A DNA stretch of 64,000 nt. Origin: Taiwanofungus camphoratus. Its lineage: Eukaryota; Basidiomycota; Agaricomycetes; Polyporales; Taiwanofungaceae. Under the pieces are notes generated by a model, which searched no databases, was not told the DNA's origin, and saw only the letters and a program-made list of their open reading frames with translations. Shown here piece by piece: positions 19,346-62,662 of this stretch (positions within the stretch are counted from its first letter, which is position 1; the number at the start of each line of letters is the position of its first letter). The position numbers were made by a program, and so were the translations under genes. The DNA lies in contig CP021228.1 of NCBI GenBank assembly GCA_003999685.1, positions 1,302,001-1,366,000 on the forward strand. Reading direction: 5' to 3'.

Positions 19346-21122
19346 AGTTGTCTGAACCCTCTGTACGAAATGTAATTACCAGACTTCGCAAACGCAATAC
19401 ACTTTATTTGCCCGGATACATTGTTGTGGGAGAGAAAGCTGTCGCAGTATGCCCCCTATTAGACAGCGGAGCCGATGCCAACCTAATCCACCCAAACTTC
19501 ATGAAGCAATGGGGACTCCCTACCAGGCCGCTACCACGGACAGTGACCTCTACAACCATTGATGGGAGTGAAAACAAGGGGGGGCCCATCACCCATAGGG
19601 TCGAAGGAAGCATTCGACTACAAGGAAACGATGTTCCCACCAACTTCTACGTCTCAGACATTGGGCCACTTGACGTTGTACTTGGCAACCCCTGGCTCGC
19701 ACAAGTCAATCCCCGGATCGACTGGGTGAAGGGGACACTCGATATTGACCAAGCCAGGCTTGCTGAATGGCAGGGGTATTACGCCTGGATTATGTCTCAA
19801 CCAACTTCGAATGGGATCCCCCTCTGCCATGCCTCGGTGCACGAGGATGACGATGAGTTGGAAGAGATAGTATGCGCATACACGCATGGGGAAGGGGTGC
19901 TTGGGGTTTTCCAGCACAAAGAACAGCCACTCACCAATGAAGAAGGGCTGTTGCAACCACCAATCCCGAAGAAAGCAACACTGAACAGGGTCACCCATTT
20001 CCCGAACTCAAAGCTGCTGGTGCTAAATGCTAGGAAAGCTATAGATCTAGAAACACCACCAGAACCACCCCCCTCGCTGGAGGATCTTGTTCCGGAATAC
20101 TTGTGGGACTACAAACAAGTGTTCGAAAAGGCTGCTGCGGACCGCTTCCCCGAATCAAAGCCATGGGACCATGCAGTCAAGCTGAAACCAAACTTCATCC
20201 CAAAGAAATGCAGAGTGATCCCGCTATCCGTAAAAGAACAAGCCAAAATGGACAAGTTCATATCGGAGAACCTGGCAAAGGGGTATCTGCGAGAGTCAAA
20301 CTCCCCTATGGCATCGCCCGCCTTCTTTGTCAAAAAGAAGGATGGGACGCTGTGGCCATGCCAAGACTACCGGTATCTGAATGATGCCACAGTCAAGGAT
20401 GCTTACCCATTGCCTCTGATAGGGGAGCTCATTGATCGACTCTAGAAAGCCACAGTGTTCACCAAGTTGGACCTTCAAAATGGATACAACAACGTCCAGA
20501 TCAGAGAGGGTGACCAGTGGAAAGGCGCGTTTATGGTAAAACATGGCAACAAGGACAAGCTCATTGAGCCCACTGTCATGTTTTTTGGAATGTGCAATGC
20601 CCCCGCTACCTTTCAGTGCATGATGAATGATGGCTTCGAGGACATGCTGGTGGAAGGATGGATAGCAATCTACATGGATGACATCCTTATCTTCTCAGAT
20701 GATGCCACAGTGCACCGGGAGCGAACACAACGGGTCCTGCAACAGTTACAAGAGTTGGATCTGTTCGTAAAACCGGAGAAATGCACTTTCGATGTCGTCG
20801 AAGTGGACTTCCTGGGTATGACGATCTCCCCTGGGCAGGTGCACATGGACAAGGACAAATTGTGTGGAATCACAGACTGGCCCCGCCCCACCAGGGTGAA
20901 AGATGTCGAACGGTTCCTGGGACTCGCCAACTACTATCGACGCTTCATCCACAACTTCTCCTACATCGCACACCCGTTAAATGTGATGAAGAAGAAGCGC
21001 ACCGAGTGGAATTGGACACCTGCTTGCAAAAATGCCTTTGAGGAACTCAAGCGATGTTTCTCCAGCATGCCCATCCTCCACATGCCAGACCTCTCAAAAC
21101 CGTTCACAATTGAAGCAGACGC
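19346..21122 (+). pseudogene. Chromovirus-type gypsy pol fragment 1: protease and reverse transcriptase
   Basis: Protease: PLLDSGADANLIH (DSG active site) at about 19459, followed by DVVLGNPWL. Reverse transcriptase: the [19 protein letters not shown] palm start, a TAG at 20443-20445, then [12 protein letters not shown] (motif A) and IYMDDILIFS (motif C) near 20670, and the connection to RNase H at FTIEADA. The frame is otherwise open. At 21122 it is cut by the 5' LTR of the G3 element. The rest of pol is not found on the other side of G3. It is about 75 percent similar by eye to the pol at 32057-37078. Confidence 0.9.
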
Positions 21123-22102
21123 TGATAGGCGCCAGGCCCTTCTAGGCCCCGTGGAGCGCCCTCACTCGACCCTAGGACCTTAGTCATGACTTCGACGCCA
21201 CTCGACATGTCCGATACAGCCCGAAAAGCCACCGTGGGACTCTCCAATAGCCTTGAATCACGCCACCGCCACTCCGCCAGTTCTGGTCCGATGTTCCGGT
21301 GTACCGGTCCCTCTACACACAATACGCCACATGCAGTTGCCACTCAATGTCCTCACACGTGACCGGTCTCGCCACTCCGATATCGCTCGATTTGCTACGA
21401 TGCGCCACTCGATGTACTCGATAACGCTACGGCCCCAGGTCTTGTCTTAGTATATTTCATGCCACTCCATAATTCGTAGTACGCAAGTAGTTAGGATGCC
21501 ACTCGTACTATGCCACTCCCGATGCACCTTACATTATAGTACAGTAGTATAAATGCGATGTATGGTGTCTTAGAACAACAGAGAAGTTTTCCCCTATCCT
21601 GCAGAGCTCAAGAAGAGCACCTTCGATTTAGTCACCTACTGCGTTCTACTGCGTCCTTCCGTCTTCGATTACGTTCGAAGAGTTGCGTCTACTATCTGCC
21701 TTCTACAGTATCTTGAAGGCTTGCGTCTCGTCTGTCTTCGACATCAGTCGAAGAAGTTGCATTCAGTCTTACGTCTGCCTTCGAGCCACATCGAAGGACT
21801 GCACTAGCATCTCTCTCTAACCCAAGTCCGCCTTCTACAGAAATTCGAAGGGCTGTATATCAGCTAAGTTCTCACGTTTAAGCCTCTCCCTAGTATAGTA
21901 CAGCATAGTAGCGCATCGAAGCTACGTCAAGCAGTCGCGACACATGTAGAGGGTCGTCGAAGACCTTCGTAGACGTCTCTCGACCCATTTGAGATCGGGA
22001 ACCCTTTGCTGCTGACTCTCCCCTCCACACTAACTAGTTCTATAGCCTTCCAGCTTCTCTAGGTCGTACCCAGTTGGGGTTGGAGTGTTATAGTGCGCAT
22101 CA
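21123..22102 (+). repeat. G3 5' LTR, copy 1
   Basis: A 980 bp LTR from TGATAGGCGCC to GCGCATCA. It has dense GCCACTC words in the first half and CTTCGA/TCGAAG words in the second half. The 3' LTR at 30308-31200 is the same sequence with an internal loss of about 90 bp. Confidence 0.93.
21548..21554 (+). promoter_or_regulatory. Probable TATA box of the G3 LTR
   Basis: TATAAAT preceded by TACAGTAG, about 430 bp into the LTR. It is conserved as TATAAA in the 3' LTR, in the G3 copy 2 LTRs and in the solo LTR near 40530. Transcription would start a few tens of bases downstream. Not tested. Confidence 0.55.
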
Positions 22103-24688: not shown

Positions 24689-27600
24689 TACCCCATTGTC
24701 AAGGAGAAGCAGCCCTAGTCATCGACTACGATGGGGCAAAGCCAAGTATTTCTTTCGTTGCTCCGATAAATTCTTCGATCTCCGGTGCAGTCCAGTCTCT
24801 TTATCTCTCTGCTTGTTCTTCAGTCTCCTCACATTTGCAGTCTCTCTATACCGCAGACACAAAAGCATCCAGTATGGCCACATCGAACGCTTCGATGTGG
24901 GCTTCGACACTTTTATTTTCAGCCCCTTTTGCTTCGCTTCCTAATCTGTCCTCTTTGAACTCTTCGAATTGCGCTTCAACCTCTCAGCTTCTTAATTCCA
25001 TTCATCCGACATCTTCTACGTCAACTCACGAAACCTACGCAGCTACTAAGAAGAAGTACAAGCCAGTCACACTCAAGACTCGTCCCGTTCTAGGAGCGGT
25101 CCCCAAGCAGTTTCAAATAATTCGAGATATCAAGGGCGACCCCCTATCCATTATGCCAGTACTTTCAGCTGACCCCCCACCCTTTGAACCTACTGGCCGT
25201 TATACGCGTGAACACTTCAAAATTACGGAGAAGCTTCACGACGGCACCTTCCTGCTCCTCGACGAGCGTCAAGTTCTCCATCACTTCATGTGCTTGCACA
25301 ACGAAGCCTTCGCATGGACCGACGAAGAAAGGGGATGCTTCAAACCAGAGTACTTCCCTCCCATAGATTTCCCCATCATACCACATATGCCCTGGGTGCA
25401 GAAGAATATCCCAATTCCACCCGGGATCTACAATCAAGTCTGCGCAATAATCAAGCGAAAGATTGACGCAGGTGTCTACGAGCCTTCGAACTCGTCGTAC
25501 CGATTGCGTTGGTTCTGCGTAGTAAAGAAGGACGGGAAATCTCTTCGACTCGTACACTCCCTCGAGCCCCTTAACGCAGTTACTATACAGCACTCCGGCG
25601 TACCACCAACGCCAGAATATCTCGCAGAACAGTTTGGAGGAAGACTGTGCAGCGGCATGCTTGACCTCTACGTAGGCTACAACAAACGACTCATCACGGA
25701 GTCTTCGAGAGACCTTACAACGTTCCAAACTCCCTATGGTGCCATGCGACTCGTCACCCTTCTGATGGGTTGGACGAACTCAGTCCCTATATTCCACGAC
25801 GACGTCACGCACATTCTACAACCCGAAATCCCGCACTCTACAGTCCCCTACATTGATGACATTCCAGTCAAAGGCCCCGCATCTGACTACAACGACGAGC
25901 GGCTGCCTTCGAACCATGGGATTCGAAGATTCGTATGGGAACACTTTGAAAACTTGAATCGAATCGTTACTCGAATGCGCTACGCAGGAGGAACCTTCTC
26001 CAGCGTAAAGAGCGTTCTAATCTCGCGTGAAATCATGGTCATAGGGCACCGGTGTACTCCTGAAGGACGGTTGCCCGACGACTCTCGAGTCTCAGCAATA
26101 CACAACTGGGGCCCCTGCGCTACGCTCTCCGATGTTCAAGCGTTTCTAGGAACTATCGGAGTTGTTCGAATCTTCATACGCAACTTCGCCCATCGTGCCG
26201 ATGCCCTCGTACATCTTACAAGGAAGGATGTAGAGTTCAAATTCGGTCCTGAGCAAATTGTAGCACAAGAAGACCTCAAGGACACTCTACTCTCCTCCTC
26301 CACACTACGAGCTATCAACTACAATTCCCCGTCCCCTGTAATCCTCGCAGTCGACACTTCATTCATTGCAGTTGGGTACCACCTTTGTCAGTGCGACGAA
26401 GCCAACACTCGAATCCGCTACTACAACCGCTTTGGCTCTATCACGCTGAACGATCACGAGCGAAGGTTCTCTCAACCTAAACTCGAGATCTACGGTCTAT
26501 TCCGCGCCCTTCGATCCCTTCGACTTTACCTTATCGGTGTTCGAAACCTCATCATAGAAGTCGATGCTCGCTACATCAAAGGCATGCTCAAGAACCCAGA
26601 TATCGCCCCCAGCGCAAGCATCAACCGCTGGATAGTAGCCATCCTCACATTCCACTTCACGATAGTACATGTTCCTGGTACAATGCATGGCCCCGATGGT
26701 CTCTCTCGACGTACACCACAGCCAGGCAACGCTGTCGTAGAAGAAATCGACGAAGACTTCGACGACTGGATTGATCACATGCACTCCTTTGTACATCAGA
26801 TACTACCTCCCCCTCATGCCCCTACGATGTCCGTGCTAACCAACGCAGAAGCCGAGGATGGCTCCAATTTCAAAAAGGAGGAAGATAGCTACGAAATCAT
26901 CCCGCATTCAGAGCAAGCGCAGCTCGCAGATGCAAGACTCGATGAGGTCCTCGAGTTTCATTGAACGCTTTCGAAGCCAGAAGGCATTTCGGACAGCAAA
27001 TACGAAGGGTTTCTCAAGTACTGCGTGCTGTTCTTCTTGGATAACGACACTCTATGGTGAAAAGACAACCATGGCGTGCACAAGTTGGTCGTCAAGCCTG
27101 GCGATCGCCTTCGAATCCTTCGAGAATGTCACGACCGCACCGCTCATCAGGGCATCTACGCAACAAAAGTCTTTGTCAACGAATGATTTTGGTGGCCGTT
27201 CCACTACGCAGATATAGCATGGTTCGTTCGAACGTGCCATCTATGCCAGTCTCGTCAAGTTCAGCAAATCCTTATTCCCCCTACCGTTGCAATGCCTGCC
27301 CCTATCTTCGCAAAGATACATATCGATACAATGCATATGCCCGCATCAGGTGGATACAAGTACCTCGTACAAGGAAGATGCTCTCTCACGACGTACCCAG
27401 AGTTTCAAATGCTTCGAAAAGAAACAGCATCAGCGCTTGCTGACTGGATCTTCGAAGACATCCTCTGTTGATGGGGCGCACTCAGCGAGATCGTTACGGA
27501 CAATGGTGCAGCGTTTATCAAAGCGGCAGACTATCTGTCGAAGAAATACCACATCAACCACATTCGAATCAGCGGCTACAACTCTAGAGTGAACGGACTC

Positions 27601-28302
27601 GTCGAACGACCGCACTTCAGCACGAGACAAGCCTTGTTCAAAACCGCCGACAGAGACGAGAAGAAGTGGTCTCGCGTGGCGTACTTCGTATTCTGGTCCG
27701 AACGCATTACGACTCGACGACGCATGGGTTGCTCACCATACTTTGTGGTAACAGGCACCCACCCCCTCATCCCTCTCGACATCGTAGAAGCCACGTACCT
27801 TCAGCCCCCTCCCACTTCAATTCTTTCTACAACAGATCTCATCACATGTAGAGCAATCGCGCTCCAGAAGCGCGTAAAGCAAGTAGCTGAACTCAGCTCG
27901 AAGGTCTACGAAGCCCGTCGAACAGCAGCACTTCGCTTCGAAAAGGAGCACGAGCACTCGATCAAGGACTTTAATTTCAAACGTGAAGACTTAGTGCTCG
28001 TACGAAACACGAAGATTGAGAAGTCCCTGAATAGCAAGATGCGCCCCCGCTACTTAGGCCCCCTCATCGTTGTCTCACGCAACAAGGGCGGCGCGTACAT
28101 CATCTGCGAACTGGACGGCACAGTCCTCGATTGGCCCATCGCAGCATTTCGAGTCATCCCCTACTTCGCTCGACAATCCATCCCTATCCCGGACAACCTA
28201 GAAGACATCTCAACTGAGCGTCTTCGAGAACTCGAACGATCCAATTCACTCGGCGACGACGACGATGACATCGTCGAAGACGTCGAAGAAAGCGAGCAGT
28301 AG
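24685..28302 (+). pseudogene. G3 copy 1 pol: reverse transcriptase, RNase H, integrase
   Basis: Lies in the -1 frame relative to gag-protease, suggesting a frameshift at the TTGA overlap. Reverse transcriptase: YEPSNSSYRLRWFCVVKKDGK, then VPYIDDIPV (catalytic YIDD) near 25850. RNase H: ILAVDTSFIAVGYHL and VPGTMHGPDGLSRR. A TGA at 26962-26964, shared with copy 2, precedes the integrase zinc-binding region (HDRTAHQG ... CHLCQ). The integrase core has HIDTMHMP, VTDNGAAF and NGLVERPH (D, D, E). It ends with an acidic DDDDIVEDVEE tail, with no chromodomain seen. Further TGA codons near 27058, 27186 and 27469 disable it; copy 2 lacks at least two of these. Confidence 0.9.
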
Positions 28303-28695: not shown

Positions 28696-30068
28696 CTACT
28701 CCTCATTGCCCAACTCAGCACCCATGTCGAAGCCGCCACCCGCAATCGCCTCCTGTTCCATGTGAATCAGCTCCAGGTCGAGGTCATGGAGCATGACGTG
28801 GCAAAATGCAATGTTCACGTGCTCCGCCCGAATCATGCGGATGGCAGTGCACGACTGCTCATCGAGGTCGAGCGAGTCCAGGTCGTCCTGCTCGAGGCCC
28901 AGGCGACTATCGCCATCCAGGGGAACCTTGATAGCGGGGCGAGGCGGCTGGGCCACTCGACGGCGCTTCAATCCGCTGGCCTCTCCTGTTGAAGGTCCAG
29001 GCGAAGGAGGGGGGGCTGCAGAAAAAGACAAGTCAGGGACAAATGCAAGAAAGAAGAAGAAGACTCACCCTGCTTCTTCGCACCACCACGAGTCTTCTTC
29101 GTACGACCCAAGACCGAGACCCCACCGAAATGGCAGCCCTGCGCTGCCTGGATGCACCGCTCACACGCAGTGGCACCCTCCACCCAGACACACTCGACGG
29201 TCTGAATGCGGATTCGACATCGATTGCACTATGAAGAAGTATTAGCTCAGGAGAATAGCTGAAGAAACAAATCACATACCTTTTCCCCTGCCTGCTGCTT
29301 CATCCGCGCGACTCGTGCCCAGTCAGTCTCGGGCGCCGTCGAGCCATCGCGGTCGCTCTTTGACGCCTTCTACAAACCGGTCAGTAATTGAATAGGAGGG
29401 CAAGACTCCGTAACGTACCGCCGCAGCGTCACCCTCATCATCCCGAGCCCGTTTCTTTCCCTTCAAAAGGGCAGCGGCCCCTTCGATGTGCTTCCCAGTA
29501 CCCTCCACCATCCTAGACACGTCGGCATCAGCCAACTGCGCGGCCTCCTCCGCCTCTCATTGAAGGGCAGCCTCCTCCTCCTCACGCTCCCGAGCCACAC
29601 GCGCGGCTTCTTCTTGGCGGCATTCTTCTTCGACACAACGAGCCTCAGCCGCAGCAGCACGGAGGCGTGCCTCTTCTTCGCGACGCCTCTCCTCTTCAAC
29701 GTGACGAGCAGTGACGGCGTCGATCGCAGTGGCCAGGGCCAGCCATTCATCGTGGACCCACATGGCCCACGACTTGGTGGCAATCTCAGCGAGCTCACCA
29801 ACCAGCGTCGCCACACGCTCATCCACCTCCGCGTCCTCAACGGGCCCCCACGCCTTGCGATACGTACTCTACGACAGAGGTAGTTAGCAAATAGGAAAGG
29901 ACAAGCTGATAAGAGACGTACCAGCAAATCTGCAACGTCCTGCGCCCAAGCTTCGACCTCCTCAGGGACGGTGTCGGCACAGGGTGTATCGAGCACCACG
30001 ATCAGACAGTCCCGGGTGCGCTGAACGCGCGAAGCGATGACAGCGGGGGTAGCGGAACGAGAAGGCAT
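28696..30068 (-). CDS. Antisense spliced gene inside G3 copy 1, six-cysteine cluster protein
   Basis: Reverse-strand gene between integrase and 3' LTR. Exons read as 30068-29922, 29868-29419, 29369-29280, 29228-29069 and 29015-28696. All four introns (49-53 bp) have GT-AG ends, and phases match, giving 388 codons plus stop if one in-frame TGA in exon 2 (near 29558) is ignored. That TGA is shared with copy 2. Exon 2 encodes a long Glu/Arg/Ala-rich helix, probably coiled coil. Exon 4 encodes a cysteine cluster of pattern C-x2-C-x8-C-x8-C-x2-C-x6-C followed by FGGVS and a basic KKTRGGAKK stretch. Exon 5 has KRRR and an acidic Asp/Leu-rich tail. The cluster resembles fungal Zn2Cys6 DNA-binding domains but with different spacing, so a nuclear zinc protein is an inference. 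With the TGA, only about 149 aa would be made. Confidence 0.72.
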
Positions 30069-30307
30069 TGTAAGGTAGAGGAGGCCGATGTAGAAAAGGG
30101 GGAGCGTGTCGAATATGGAACGACAAGCGAAGAAAAACAGCTAAGTCGCTCCGGCTTAAATCCTCTTCAACGGCACGTGATCGGCACGAGTCACGAGAAG
30201 GTCGAAACCGTGCAGGTCCCCATAAAAGCTTCGATCCAGTCACATCCACCAAGCTTCTAGGCATCACGTGTGGACCGAGGACGGTCCAAATTCCAAAAAG
30301 GAGGAGA
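30069..30307. promoter_or_regulatory. G3 polypurine tract and upstream region of the antisense gene
   Basis: The last bases, AAAAAGGAGGAGA at 30295-30307, form the polypurine tract that primes plus-strand DNA and abut the 3' LTR. The remaining roughly 225 bp lie just upstream of the antisense start codon and should carry its promoter, possibly helped by the LTR. Confidence 0.6.
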
Positions 30308-31200
30308 TGATAGGCGCCAGGCCCTTCTAGGCCCCACGGAGCGCCCTCACTCGACCCTAGGACCTTAGTCATGACTTCGATGCCACTCGACATGTCTGAT
30401 ACAGCCCGAAAAGCCACCGCGGGACTCTCTGATAGCCTCGAATCACGCCACCGCCACTCCGCCAGTTCCGGTCTGATGTTCTGGTGTACCGGTCCCTCTA
30501 CGCACAATACGCCACACGCAGTTGCCACTCAATGTCCTCGCACGTGACCAGTCTTGCCACTCTGATATTGCTCGATCTGCTACGACGCGCCACTCGATGT
30601 ACTCAATAACGCTACGGCCCCAGGTCTTGTCTTAGTATATTTCATGCCACTCCGTAGTTCGTAGTACGCAAGTAGTTAGGATGCCACTCGTACTATGCCA
30701 CTCCCAATGCGCCTTACATTATAGTACAGTAGTATAAATGCGAGGTATGGTGTCTCAGAACAACAGAGAAGTTTTCCCCTTCCTGCTGAGCTCAAGAAGA
30801 GCACCTTCGATTCAGTCACCTACTGTGTTCTACTGCGTCCTTCTGTCTTCGATTACATTCGAAGAGTTGCGTCTACTTTCTGTCTTCTACAGTATCTTGA
30901 AGGGTTGCGTCTTGTCCGTCTTCGACATCCGTCGAAGATATTTTGAAGGGCTGCATATCAGCTAAGTTCTCACGTTTAAGCCTCTCCTTAGTATAGTACA
31001 GCATAGTAGCACATCGAAGCTACGTCGAGCAGTCGTGACACACGTAGAGGGTCGTCGAAGACCTTCGTAGACATCTCTCGACCCATTTGAGATCAGGAAC
31101 CCTTTGCTGCTGACTCTCCCCTCCACACTAACTAGTTCTATAGCCTTCCAGCTTCTCTAGGTCGTACCCAGTTGGGGTTGGAGTGTTATAGTGCGCATCA
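30308..31200 (+). repeat. G3 3' LTR, copy 1
   Basis: An 893 bp LTR, TGATAGGCGCC to GCGCATCA. Relative to the 5' LTR it lacks about 90 bp in the TTCGAAG-rich part (near 30940) and has scattered CG-to-TG or CG-to-CA changes. Confidence 0.92.
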
Positions 31201-31269
31201 ACGTGCTCCGCCCCCACCATTCAAAATGAATGAACTGTTTGTCTCCACCCTGAATGCCGTCAAACGTCA

Positions 31270-51354: not shown

Positions 51355-51659
51355 TGATAGATGCCAGGCCCTTCTAGGCCCCATGGAGTGCCCTCACTCA
51401 ACCCTAGGACCTTAGTCATGTCTTTAATGCCACTCGATGTGTCCGATACAACCTGAAAAGACACCACGAGACTCTCTAATAGCTTCGAATCACACCACAG
51501 CCACTCTGCCAGTTCTGGTCTGATGTTCTGGTGTATTGTTCCCTCTACGCACAATACACCACATGCAGTTGCCACTCAAGGTTCTCACACATGACCGGTC
51601 ACACCACTTTGATATCACTCGATCTGCTACGACGCGCCACTCGATGTACTCGATAATGC
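51355..51659 (+). repeat. G3 LTR fragment (first 305 bp)
   Basis: Matches the start of the G3 LTR from TGATAGATGCC to CGATAATGC, and is then replaced by the complete 5' LTR of G3 copy 2. The missing remainder of this LTR is not found on the far side of copy 2. Confidence 0.9.
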
Positions 51660-52681
51660 TGATAGGTGCCAGGCCCTTTTAGACCCCACAGAGTGCCCTC
51701 ACTCGACCCTAGGACCTTAGTCAAGACTTCAATGCCACTTGATGTATCCAATACAGCTCAAAAAGCCACTGTGGGACTCTCTGATAGCTTCGAATTATGC
51801 CACAGCCACTCTGCCAGTTCCGGTCTGACATTCTGATGTACTGTTCCCTCTACGCACAATACACCGCACACAGTTGCCACTCAAGGTCCTCGTATGTGAC
51901 CAGTCATGCCACCCCAATATCGCTTGATCAGCTTCGACGTGCCACCCGATGCGCTCAATAACGCTACAGGTTTCATCTTAGTCTATATACGTTCCTTTAT
52001 CTCAGCCTTTCTAGTGATGTCAGTACAGTAGCCACTCCCTCTATGAGCTACTTCGTAGTACGCAAGTAGTTAGGATGCCACTCGTACTACACCATTCCCG
52101 ATGCACCTTACATTATAGTAAAGTAGTATAAACGTGATATACAATGTCTTGGACCAACAGAGAAGTTTTCCCTCATTCTGCAGAGCTCAAGAAGAGCACC
52201 TTCAATTTAGTCACCTACTGCATTCTACTGCGTCCTTCCATCTTCGATTACGTTCGAAGAGTTGCGTCTACTATCTGCCTTCTACAGTATCTTGAAGGCT
52301 TGCGTCTCGTCCGTCTTTGACATCCGTCGAAGAAGTTGCATTCAGTCTTACGTCCGCCTTCGAGCCACATCGAAGGGTTGCGCTAGCATCTCTATCTAAC
52401 CCAAGTCCGCCTTCTACAGTATTTCAAAGAGCTGCGTATCAGCTAAGTTCTCACGTTTAAGCCTCTCCCTAGTATAGTACAGCATAGTAGCGTATCGAAG
52501 CTACGTCGAGCAGTCGTGACACACGTAGAGGGTCGTCGAAGACCTTCATAGACGTCTCTCGACCCATTTGAGATCGGGAACCCTTTGCTGCTGACTCTCC
52601 CCTCCACACTAACTAGTTCTATAGCCTTCCAGCTTCTCTAGGTCGTACCCAGTTGGGGTTGGAGTGTTATAGTGCGCATCA
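51660..52681 (+). repeat. G3 5' LTR, copy 2
   Basis: A 1022 bp LTR, TGATAGGTGCC to GCGCATCA. It has more CG-to-TG/CA changes than the copy 1 LTRs in its first half, and an extra segment near 51970-52040 shared with the 3' LTR of this copy. Confidence 0.92.
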
Positions 52682-60074: not shown

Positions 60075-61447
60075 CTACTCCTCATTGCCCGACTCTGCAC
60101 CCACGTCGAAGCCGCCGCCCGCAATCGCCTCTTGTTCCATGTGAATCAGCTCCAGATCGAGGTCATGGAGCATGGCGCAGCGAAATGCAATGTTCGCACG
60201 CTCTGCCCGAATCATGCGGATGGCGGTGCGCGACTGCTCATCGAGGTCGAGCGAGTCCAGGTCGTCCTGCTCGAGGCCCAGGCGACTACCGCCATCCAGG
60301 GGAACCTTGATAGCGGGGCGAGGCGGCTGGGCCACTCGACGGCGCTTCGATCCGCTGACCTCTCCCGTCGAAGGTCCAGACGAAGGAGGGGGGGCTGCAG
60401 AGAAAGACAAGTCAAGGACAAACACAAGAAAGAAGAAGAAGACTCACCCTGCTTCTTCGCACCACCGCGAGTCTTCTTCGTACGACCCAAGACCGAGACC
60501 CCACCGAAATAGCAGCCCTGCGCTGCCTGGATGCATCGCTCACACGCAGTGGCGCCCTCCGCCCAGACACACTCGATGGTCTGAATACGGATTCGACATC
60601 GATCGCACTACGAAGAAGCATTAGCTCAGGAAAGTAGCTGAAGAAACAAATCACATACCTTTTCCCCCGCCTGCTGCTTCATCCGCGCGACTCGTGCCCA
60701 GTCAGTCTCGGGCGCCGTCGAGCCGTCGCGGTCGCTCTTTGACGCCTTCTACAAACCGGTCAGTAATTGAATAGGAGGGCAAGACTCCGTAACGTACCGC
60801 CGCAGTGTCACCCTCATCATCCCGAGCCCGTTTCTTTCCCTTTAAAGGGGCAGCGGCCCCTTCGATGTGCTCCCCAGTACCCTCCACCATCCTAGACACG
60901 TCGGCATCAGCCAACTGCGCGGCCTCCTCCGCCTCTCATTGAAGGGCAGCCTCCTCCTCCTCACGCTCCCGAGCCACACGCGCGGCTTCTTCTTGGCGGC
61001 ATTCTTCTTCGACACAACGAGCCTCAGCCGCAGCAGCACGGAGGCGTGCCTCTTCTTCGCGACGCCTCTCCTCTTCAACGTGACGAGCAGTGACGGCGTC
61101 GATCGCAGTGGCCAGGGCCAGCCATTCATCGTGGACCCACATGGCCCACGACTTGGTGGCAATCTCGGCGAGCTCACCAACCAGCGTCGCCACACGCTCA
61201 TCCACCTCCGCGTCCTCAACAGGCCCCCACGCCTTGCGATACATACTCTACGACAGAGGTAGTTAGCAAATAGGAAAGGACGAGCTAATAAGAGACGTAC
61301 CAGCAAATCCGCAACGTCCTGCGCCCAAGCTTCGACCTCCTCGGAGACGGTGTCGGCACAGGGTGTATCGAGTACCGCGATCAGACGGTCCCGAGTGCGC
61401 TGAACGCGCGAAGCGACGACAGCGGGGGTAGCAGAACGAGAAGGCAT
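60075..61447 (-). CDS. Antisense spliced gene inside G3 copy 2, six-cysteine cluster protein
   Basis: Same gene as at 28696-30068, offset by exactly 31379 bp. Exons: 61447-61301, 61247-60798, 60748-60659, 60607-60448 and 60394-60075. All four GT-AG introns are kept. The cysteine pattern C-x2-C-x8-C-x8-C-x2-C-x6-C is fully kept, while neighbours differ by conservative changes (Asn to Asp, Val to Ile, His to Tyr). The in-frame TGA in exon 2 (near 60937) is shared. The Glu/Arg-rich helix and the final Asp/Leu-rich region (DDLDSLDLDEQS) are conserved. The function is unknown; a zinc-stabilised, possibly DNA-binding, accessory protein of the element is the leading guess. Confidence 0.72.
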
Positions 61448-61686: not shown

Positions 61687-62662
61687 TGATAGGCGCCAGG
61701 CCCTTCTAGGCCCCACGGAGCGCCCTCACTCGACCCTAGGACCTTAGTCATGGCTTCGACGCCACTCGACATGTCCGATACAGCCCGAAAAGCCACCGCG
61801 GGACTCTCCGATAGCCTCGAATCACGCCACCGCCACTCCGCCAGTTCTGGTCCAATGTTCCGGTGTACCGTTCCCTCTACACACAATACACCACACACAG
61901 TGGCCACTCAAGGTCCTCGCACGTGACCGGTCTTGCCACTCCAATATCGCTCGATCTGCTACGACACGCCACTCGATGTACTCGATAACGCTACAGCCCC
62001 AGGTCTTGTCTTAGTATATTTCATGTATGTTCCTTTGTTTCAGCCTTTCTAGTGACGACAAGTAGCCACTCCCTCTACAGGCCACTCCGTAGTTCGTAGT
62101 ACGCAAGTAGTTAGGATGCCACTTGTACTATGCCACTCCCGATGCGCCTTACATTATAGTACAGTAGTATAAATGCGATGTATGGTGTCTCGGAACAACA
62201 GAGAAGTTCACCCCCATCCTGCAGAGCTCAAGAAGAGCACCTTCGATTCAGTCTCCTACTGCATTCTACTGCATCCTTCCATCTTCGATTACGTTCGAAG
62301 AGTTGCGTCTACCATCCACCTTCTACAGTATCTTGAAGGGTTGTGTCTCATCCATCTTCGACATTCATCGAAGGGTTGCGTTCAGTCTTATATCCGCCTT
62401 CGAGCCACATCGAAGGGTTGCATATCAGCTAAGTCCTCACGTCTTGCCTCTCCTTAGTACAGTACAGCATAGTAGCACATCGAAGCTACGTCGAACAGTC
62501 ACAACACACGTCGTAGGTCACTGAAGGTCTTTGTAGACATCTCTCGACCCATTTGAAACTGGGAACCCTTTGCTGCTGACTCTCCCCTCCACACTAGTTC
62601 TATAGCCTTCCAGCTTCTCTAGGTCGTACCCAGTAGGGGTTGGAGTGTTATAGTGCGCATCA
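61687..62662 (+). repeat. G3 3' LTR, copy 2
   Basis: A 976 bp LTR, TGATAGGCGCC to GCGCATCA, preceded by the polypurine tract AAAAAGGAGGAGA. It abuts the KDZ transposase remnant at 62663. Confidence 0.92.

What the first reader, a model, noticed from the sequence alone, without database searches (positions are those of the whole stretch)
28696..30068. Spliced antisense gene with a six-cysteine cluster carried by a gypsy element
In G3 copy 1 a reverse-strand gene with four short, well-formed GT-AG introns lies between integrase and 3' LTR. Copy 2 (60075-61447) has the same gene, with every splice site and all six cysteines of C-x2-C-x8-C-x8-C-x2-C-x6-C kept while other positions drift. Introns inside a retroelement survive only if the gene is transcribed opposite to the genomic RNA, so the orientation makes sense. 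The protein (helix-rich Glu/Arg region, Cys cluster, basic patch, acidic tail) could be a regulator or silencing-evasion factor. One in-frame TGA shared by both copies in exon 2 argues that these copies are already dead or make a short form.
Basis: partly seen in the sequence, partly recalled or inferred. Interest (0 to 1): 0.78.

Follow-up and report, generated by a model that had tools for sequence, protein, structure and literature searches.

The report
Antisense spliced gene in mushroom retrotransposons
Jumping elements of a wood-rotting medicinal mushroom carry an extra gene, written backwards with its own introns and encoding a six-cysteine protein, that natural selection has kept working; it is probably a regulator the element makes for itself, and its exact job can now be tested.

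Summary
The genome is Taiwanofungus camphoratus. Genome-wide, 98 of 109 integrase loci of this lineage have the cysteine exon beside them on the opposite strand. Of 17 near full-length family-1 copies, 8 keep the whole frame; the TGA is in only 3, so it is private decay. Against diverged subfamilies exons are 67-73% but introns 48-61% identical, with dN/dS 0.32-0.44. A second, younger gypsy family has a homologous antisense gene with the same cysteine spacing and three shared intron sites: 18 of 20 copies read are open and shared replacement changes are depleted (10 against 29 expected). Relatives abound in Postia placenta. One intact single-copy homologue has no integrase nearby. The cluster is not a recognisable Pfam Zn2Cys6 domain. 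Antisense additional genes are known in plant elements and fungal Boty, so this is a new variant of a known kind. Most likely it is a nuclear regulator of the element's own expression (inferred). A GCCACTC array in the family-1 LTR is a candidate target, unproven, without counterpart in family 2.

The parts
21123..22102 (+). 5' LTR of copy 1 (also eight GCCACTC)
   Evidence: TG..CA ends and sequence repeat with the 3' LTR
27472..28302 (+). C-terminal part of pol (integrase), frame ends at 28302
   Evidence: ORF; 121 matching segments, 109 loci, in the genome
28696..30068 (-). antisense accessory gene of copy 1 (5 exons), in-frame TGA in exon 2
29922..30068 (-). exon 1
29419..29868 (-). exon 2: Glu/Arg helix region; TGA at codon 153 (3 of 17 copies)
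29280..29369 (-). exon 3
29069..29228 (-). exon 4: six-cysteine cluster C-x2-C-x8-C-x8-C-x2-C-x6-C and basic patch; intron 3 ends directly before the first Cys
28696..29015 (-). exon 5: conserved C-terminal part and acidic tail
30069..30307 (-). spacer between the gene and the 3' LTR; TATA-like GATTTAAG 94 nt upstream of the ATG (76-108 nt in 29 of 30 loci); polypurine tract at the LTR edge (by eye)
30308..31200 (+). 3' LTR of copy 1
30382..30703 (+). U3 array: eight GCCACTC, all in one orientation, upstream of the LTR TATA box (30733)
60075..61447 (-). antisense accessory gene of copy 2, same exon structure and same TGA
61687..62662 (+). 3' LTR of copy 2
   Evidence: start- and end-like sites

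Best explanation
The feature is an accessory gene that belongs to a lineage of polypore gypsy elements and travels with their pol gene. It is written antisense between integrase and the 3' LTR and is inferred to be transcribed from its own TATA-like promoter in the spacer just inside the 3' LTR. Its introns escape removal during retrotransposition because the genomic RNA carries them in the wrong orientation (inferred). SHOWN: gene structure, presence beside most integrases of the lineage, purifying selection between lineages and within the young family, homology across two gypsy families and protein relatives in Postia. INFERRED: the product is a nuclear, zinc-binding protein (six-Cys cluster, basic patches, predicted long helix) that acts in trans on element DNA or chromatin, most likely setting the level of LTR-driven expression. 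The direction (activation or protection from methylation silencing, versus self-limitation) is open; I lean to activation or anti-silencing because copies decay chiefly by CpG-type changes, as methylated DNA does.
For: Gene structure. Integrase loci with the Cys exon within 3.5 kb downstream on the other strand: 34 of 39 family-1-like, 60 of 63 family-2-like, 4 of 7 others. Against four intact diverged copies omega is 0.435, or 0.32 without CpG-type transitions, and 0.23 in both the Cys and the C-terminal parts. Exons 67-73%, introns 48-61% identical across 11 diverged copies. Family 2: 18 of 20 copies open; shared variants N 10 against 29.0 expected, z -6.1; exon pi 0.0149, intron pi 0.0332. 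Families 1 and 2 are homologous (hhalign 99.2%, E 3e-19, 269 columns), with introns 1, 3 and 4 in matching places. Gene and integrase distances correlate over 24 loci, r 0.73, 0 of 999 permutations. TATA-like site in 29 of 30 loci. U3 array of 8 GCCACTC in copy 1, reached by 0 of 400 shuffles; 582 pairs of the motif genome-wide against 19 for the reversed control. CpG-type changes make 33 of 49 differences between the LTRs of copy 1.
Against: No RNA, protein or binding data. No match over cut-off to Pfam (Zn_clus not matched at E 10 in the Cys part) or to any solved structure, and both models are poor. The one family-2 U3 tested has no comparable array. Within U3 the motif columns are barely more conserved than other columns of low CpG context (0.957 against 0.940). 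Within family 1 replacement changes are not depleted: private to one copy 92 against 92.7 expected, shared by three or more 51 against 52.6. Among the 17 family-1 copies the gene-integrase correlation is weak (r 0.40, reached by 58 of 999). One open copy (L013) lacks the TATA-like site. 11 of 109 integrase loci have no Cys exon in reach.
Confidence: 0.6

Rival explanations
1. A factor of the replication cycle rather than a regulator: the protein binds cDNA or integrase and helps nuclear import, integration-site choice or particle assembly, as accessory proteins do in some retroviruses.
For: Basic patches, a Cys cluster readable also as C-x2-C-x17-C-x2-C, zinc-ribbon-like (weak zf-FPG_IleRS matches in 4 of 8 members, best E 0.002, below the curated cut-off in the member shown), and company with integrase.
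Against: It would be made from a separate antisense transcript, not from gag-pol, and its DNA (introns included) diverges about three times faster than integrase between subfamilies (0.314 against 0.102), unusual for a structural partner.
Confidence: 0.2
2. A self-limiting factor: the antisense gene restrains its own element (copy-number control), as HTLV-1 HBZ is known (recalled) to restrain sense transcription.
For: Antisense placement next to the 3' LTR, own promoter candidate, trans-acting potential; family 1 is decaying.
Against: Family 2 carries an intact gene and is nonetheless the abundant young family (40 of 40 scored matches full length; 18 of 20 open).
Confidence: 0.15
3. Only the antisense RNA matters (double-stranded RNA or transcriptional interference) and the reading frame is incidental.
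For: Antisense transcripts of retroelements can regulate without protein (review PMC7264820, parts 1 and 2 of 3 read).
Against: Codon-level constraint, frame-keeping indels in open copies and conserved splice sites. Both may act together.
Confidence: 0.05
4. A captured host gene riding as a passenger without function for the element.
For: A single-copy, intact, 4-exon homologue lies at G000:C3:1164016-1165346 with no integrase in the 1 kb downstream that was read.
Against: Selection within the young family and presence in two gypsy families separated by about 26% integrase divergence.
Confidence: 0.05

Closest known systems
Antisense additional ORFs between pol and 3' LTR (aORF-3R): maize Grande gene23, rice RIRE2, Silene Retand ORF4 (TRP28), Phaseolus PvRetro13
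   Same: Same place and orientation, present in most copies; own promoter and nuclear product reported for Grande; regulatory role proposed (PMC7264820, parts 1-2 of 3 read; PMC11963269, passages read).
   Different: Plants; the domains named there (TRP28, SMC) are not matched here; the word 'intron' does not occur in the main text of PMC11963269; here four or three introns and a six-Cys cluster.
brtn, antisense gene of Boty-like gypsy elements of Botrytis cinerea (Zhao et al. 2011)
   Same: Fungal gypsy element with an additional antisense gene (title in the reference list of PMC8365987; mention in PMC7264820).
   Different: Ascomycete; the paper itself was not read, so homology, introns and cysteines were not compared.
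Gal4-type Zn2Cys6 binuclear cluster (Pfam PF00172)
   Same: Six cysteines in C-x2-C ... C-x2-C order; four of the listed Postia relatives show a UniRef name beginning 'Zn(2)-C6 fungal-type' (names are cut in the listing).
   Different: First loop is 8 (9 in Postia) residues instead of the usual 6 (recalled); no PF00172 match at E 10 in 8 Cys-region members, no PDB match at E 10; PF00172 itself finds 26 other places in this genome (50 candidates scored), none of them an antisense gene.
VANC anti-silencing proteins of Arabidopsis VANDAL transposons
   Same: Element-encoded, part conserved and part fast-evolving protein; motif arrayed in one orientation in element noncoding DNA (PMC5735166 passages), as in the family-1 U3.
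   Different: Plant DNA transposons; loss of methylation shown there, nothing shown here; the family-2 U3 tested has no such array.

Membership tests
antisense additional ORF of LTR retrotransposons (aORF-3R) | lies between pol and the 3' LTR, antisense to gag-pol | tested here: met
   integrase downstream in the opposite direction in 17 of 17 near full-length copies and 18 of 21 other fetched ones
antisense additional ORF of LTR retrotransposons (aORF-3R) | present in most copies of the family and conserved as protein | tested here: met
   98 of 109 integrase loci; selection between subfamilies and within family 2
antisense additional ORF of LTR retrotransposons (aORF-3R) | transcribed from its own promoter | not testable with these tools
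   only a conserved TATA-like site (29 of 30 loci)
Zn2Cys6 (PF00172) | significant match to the Pfam model or to solved Zn2Cys6 chains | tested here: not met
Zn2Cys6 (PF00172) | spacing C-x2-C-x6-C-x5-12-C-x2-C-x6-8-C (recalled) | tested here: not met
   first loop 8 residues here, 9 in Postia; the other spacings fit
Zn2Cys6 (PF00172) | binuclear zinc fold | tested here: inconclusive
   models with mean pLDDT 57.7 (blocks 45-62 over the Cys part) and 41.1
VANC-like anti-silencing system | short motif arrayed in one orientation in the element's own noncoding DNA | tested here: inconclusive
   family 1 yes; family 2, one U3 tested, no
VANC-like anti-silencing system | trans-acting loss of methylation at target copies | not testable with these tools
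   no methylation data
brtn of Boty | sequence homology to brtn | not tested
   brtn sequence not at hand; its paper did not appear in the library listing
HBZ-like antisense bZIP regulators | bZIP domain | tested here: not met
   no bZIP match

The most novel reading that the evidence does not exclude
[quoted passage not shown] In family 1 the protein recognises the eight-copy GCCACTC array of U3 and keeps LTRs unmethylated or active; each element family has diverged its protein and its target together; and one copy has become (or descends from) a single-copy host gene.
Probability: 0.17. Interest if true: 0.85.

Novelty: new variant of a known kind. Interest (0 to 1): 0.6.

Why it matters
What antisense accessory genes of retroelements do is an open question, stated as such in the review I read (PMC7264820). 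Here is a case with two gypsy families in one genome, many intact young copies, clear selection, a promoter candidate, a candidate target array and a single-copy homologue away from any integrase, in a fungus that can be cultured and crossed (PMC8865532). The function can therefore be tested directly.

Tried and rejected
Dead gene: rejected, because the TGA is private to 3 of 17 copies and selection is clear between lineages and in family 2. Simple dN/dS within family 1 (0.51 over 120 pairs of 16 copies, L017 left out) was set aside: CpG transitions drive it, and after control neither private nor shared replacement changes are depleted. Zn2Cys6 membership: tested, not met. Structure prediction was run twice, on a Postia relative and on the exon-4 peptide; both models were too poor, so no fold search was run. 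An array in family 2: not found; the strongest word in its U3 (TCCTAA, 7 on both strands) is reached by 10 of 400 shuffles, and TCTACG (5) in the rest of its LTR by 5 of 400. Stronger conservation of GCCACTC sites than of their surroundings: marginal once CpG context is controlled. Poly(A) signal: AATTAAA about 40-48 nt after the stop in 16 of 30 loci, not used as evidence. L078 is a family-1-like fragment cut by another repeat.

Full report
WHAT IS THERE. The window lies in a 33.2 Mb genome of 15 contigs. A T. camphoratus protein found (P0098, AcW1_001443) is recorded on a contig of 4,278,167 bases, exactly the length of contig C1 here, so the organism is Taiwanofungus camphoratus, most likely a W1-type assembly (PMC8865532, passages read, reports four genomes of this species and a gypsy expansion; its W1 total, 33,373,109, differs slightly). 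It lies between the end of pol (28302) and the 3' LTR (30308-31200), antisense to the element.

COPIES. A DNA search of the genome with the gene gave 42 matches (40 of 46 candidates scored): 17 at 92-100% over essentially the whole gene, and diverged or partial ones. I read all 17 (two in the window, 15 fetched) and 21 of the others. In the 17, 66 of 68 introns begin with GT and 68 of 68 end in AG; 8 of 17 have the whole frame open, with length changes in multiples of three; the TGA at codon 153 is in 3 of 17 (copies 1, 2 and L015). All six Cys are in register in 17 of 17. For 11 diverged copies I projected the exons: introns 1, 3 and 4 are GT..AG in 11 of 11; intron 2 ends in AG at the projected place in 3 of 11 and has an in-frame AG three bases on in the other 8. 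Four of the 11 have the whole frame open; in 9 of 11 the six Cys are in register, the other two being frameshifted before it. Exons are 67-73% identical to a family-1 copy, introns 48-61%. Integrase stands downstream in the opposite direction in 17 of 17 and in 18 of the 21 others.

PRESENCE COUNTED FROM THE INTEGRASE. The 17 copies were found by the gene, so their having it proves nothing. The independent count starts from the integrase search (121 segments; 109 loci after merging) and the search with the Cys exon of the C3 gene (108 places): the exon lies within 3.5 kb downstream on the other strand at 34 of 39 family-1-like loci (76% identity or more), 60 of 63 family-2-like loci (71-75%) and 4 of 7 others, 98 of 109 in all; 10 of 108 Cys places have no integrase partner. 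Both searches score only their best candidates, so these are lower bounds.

SELECTION. Within family 1 the naive dN/dS is 0.51, but CpG transitions dominate. Counted by mutation class, changes private to one copy fit neutrality (92 replacement against 92.7 expected), as for copies decaying after insertion; variants shared by three or more copies show no overall depletion either (51 against 52.6), the few non-CpG transitions among them being 4 replacement and 9 silent. Between subfamilies the picture is different: four family-1 copies against four intact diverged ones give omega 0.435; without CpG-type transitions 0.32, with 0.23 in the Cys part and 0.23 in the C-terminal part. Other frames of the same exons give 1.38-1.46, except one frame of the opposite strand, 0.52, with a stop in about 12 codons per pair.

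A SECOND FAMILY. The integrase search also showed about 60 younger elements at about 74%, many with long open pol frames. Three copies read are 98% identical over 4.3 kb. Their DNA did not match the family-1 gene, but in the same place and orientation they have a gene for a 406-aa protein with four exons; its introns correspond to introns 1, 3 and 4 of family 1, one of them again directly before the first Cys, and the Cys spacing is identical. A DNA search scored 40 of 74 candidates and all 40 cover the full gene. I could read 20 of these 40: 18 of 20 are open; private variants are near neutral (19 replacement against 22.0 expected), but variants shared by two or more copies are strongly depleted (10 against 29.0, z -6.1), and exons vary less than introns (pi 0.0149 and 0.0332); six Cys in 20 of 20. 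This is the clearest evidence that the protein matters to the elements that spread. Profile comparison of family 1 plus Postia with family 2 plus the C3 gene gives 99.2% probability over 269 columns, from the N-terminal part to just past the Cys cluster.

RELATIVES ELSEWHERE. Protein searches gave 18 hits (17 from Postia/Rhodonia placenta, one from T. camphoratus; only the 7994 best candidates were scored), then 96 hits with the Cys and C-terminal part of a Postia relative, the query included, all named from that species but from more than one assembly, so partly redundant; the family-2 protein found only two T. camphoratus proteins. Postia proteins have C-x2-C-x9-C-x8-C-x2-C-x6-C. Their number suggests that they too are element-borne; I had no Postia DNA, so this is inference. 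Five Postia models that run on upstream (P0002, P0003, P0004, P0005, P0010) read ...GYKQG..., its Tyr 93 nt before the Met, which implies TAY-AAR, a TATA-like stretch at the distance where T. camphoratus has GATTTAAG; this is inference from protein letters.

A GENE AWAY FROM ANY INTEGRASE. At C3:1164016-1165346 (locus L077) lies an intact four-exon gene for 384 aa, 40% identical to the family-2 protein end to end, with the same intron places and Cys spacing. Its DNA matches nowhere else. No integrase was found by tblastn in the 1 kb downstream that I read; a dispersed repeat of about 310 bases lies there. It is a candidate host gene, either source or domesticated descendant; synteny in other species would decide.

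PROMOTER AND LTR. GATTTAAG stands 94-108 nt (76 in one) upstream of the ATG in 29 of 30 loci; the exception, L013, has an open frame. The site is in the spacer inside the 3' LTR, not in the LTR. Both LTRs of copy 1 have eight GCCACTC in one orientation within U3, upstream of the LTR TATA box; no 7-mer reaches eight in 400 shuffles. Upstream of the gene the 17 copies show 6-9 of them in 16 and 2 in one. Pairs of the motif occur 582 times in the genome against 19 for the reversed control; of the roughly 100 places listed all but a handful look like LTR sequence by eye. The sites are kept in diverged subfamilies (11-19 of 20 rows exact per site), but barely better than other U3 columns of low CpG context. 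The family-2 U3 tested has no such array. The link between protein and array is therefore a hypothesis.

WHAT THE PROTEIN IS. Pfam gives nothing above its cut-offs; the Cys part finds no PDB chain at E 10, alone or as a profile; PF00172 finds 26 places in the genome, none of them an antisense gene. Four listed Postia relatives are named Zn(2)-C6 by UniRef. AlphaFold gives a confident long helix (about residues 101-156 of P0007) and a fairly confident C-terminal helix (322-361), but not the Cys part; the exon-4 peptide alone fails. I therefore call it a six-Cys cluster, probably zinc-binding, resembling but not shown to be Zn2Cys6.

MECHANISM. Shown: an element-owned antisense, spliced, selected protein gene that accompanies integrase across lineages (r 0.73 over 24 loci, 0 of 999; within family 1 only r 0.40, 58 of 999) and diverges about three times faster than it. 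Inferred: own promoter; nuclear zinc protein; action on the element's own DNA or chromatin. CpG-type changes are 33 of 49 differences between the two LTRs of copy 1, as expected of methylated DNA, so protection from methylation is a plausible benefit; self-limitation and a role in the replication cycle remain open.

WHAT IS KNOWN. Antisense additional genes between pol and the 3' LTR are a known class in plants, with unknown function and a proposed regulatory role (PMC7264820, parts 1 and 2 of 3 read; PMC11963269, passages), and Boty of Botrytis has antisense brtn (Zhao 2011 itself not read). A survey of LTR elements in fungi has no occurrence of 'antisense' in its main text (PMC3248453). In the listings I saw no report of a spliced antisense six-Cys gene in basidiomycete elements; they cover open-licence papers only. 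VANC proteins (PMC5735166, passages) are the functional analogue behind the novel case. Verdict: new variant of a known kind.

Noticed in passing
L077 (G000:C3:1163000-1165800), gene 1164016-1165346 minus strand: Single-copy, intact four-exon homologue of the antisense gene with no integrase in the 1 kb read downstream: candidate host gene, source or domesticated.
   Followed up: partly
G000:C10:629109-661308: Family-2 integrase copies at 629109, 639577, 650046 and 660514 lie about 10,468 bases apart on one strand, which looks like a head-to-tail array of whole elements.
   Followed up: no
window 21118-21122 and 31201-31205: Copy 1 shows no matching 5-bp target duplication (gacgc, acgtg); by eye its 5' flank looks like reverse transcriptase of another element, so it may be recombinant or in a nest.
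   Followed up: no
window 51355-52681: The 5' end of copy 2 has two LTR starts (51355 and 51660), a partial LTR duplication.
   Followed up: no
window 21123-22102 against 30308-31200: 33 of 49 LTR differences are CpG-type transitions, suggesting cytosine methylation of element copies in this fungus.
   Followed up: partly
L049 (G000:C4:1435700-1441200): A further gypsy family (integrase 68%) carries a broken antisense relative with the same Cys spacing, next to a family-1 LTR that seems to interrupt it.
   Followed up: partly
P0001 (T. camphoratus AcV7_007205): A public gene model of this family lacks the Cys exon, so annotation hides the domain.
   Followed up: no
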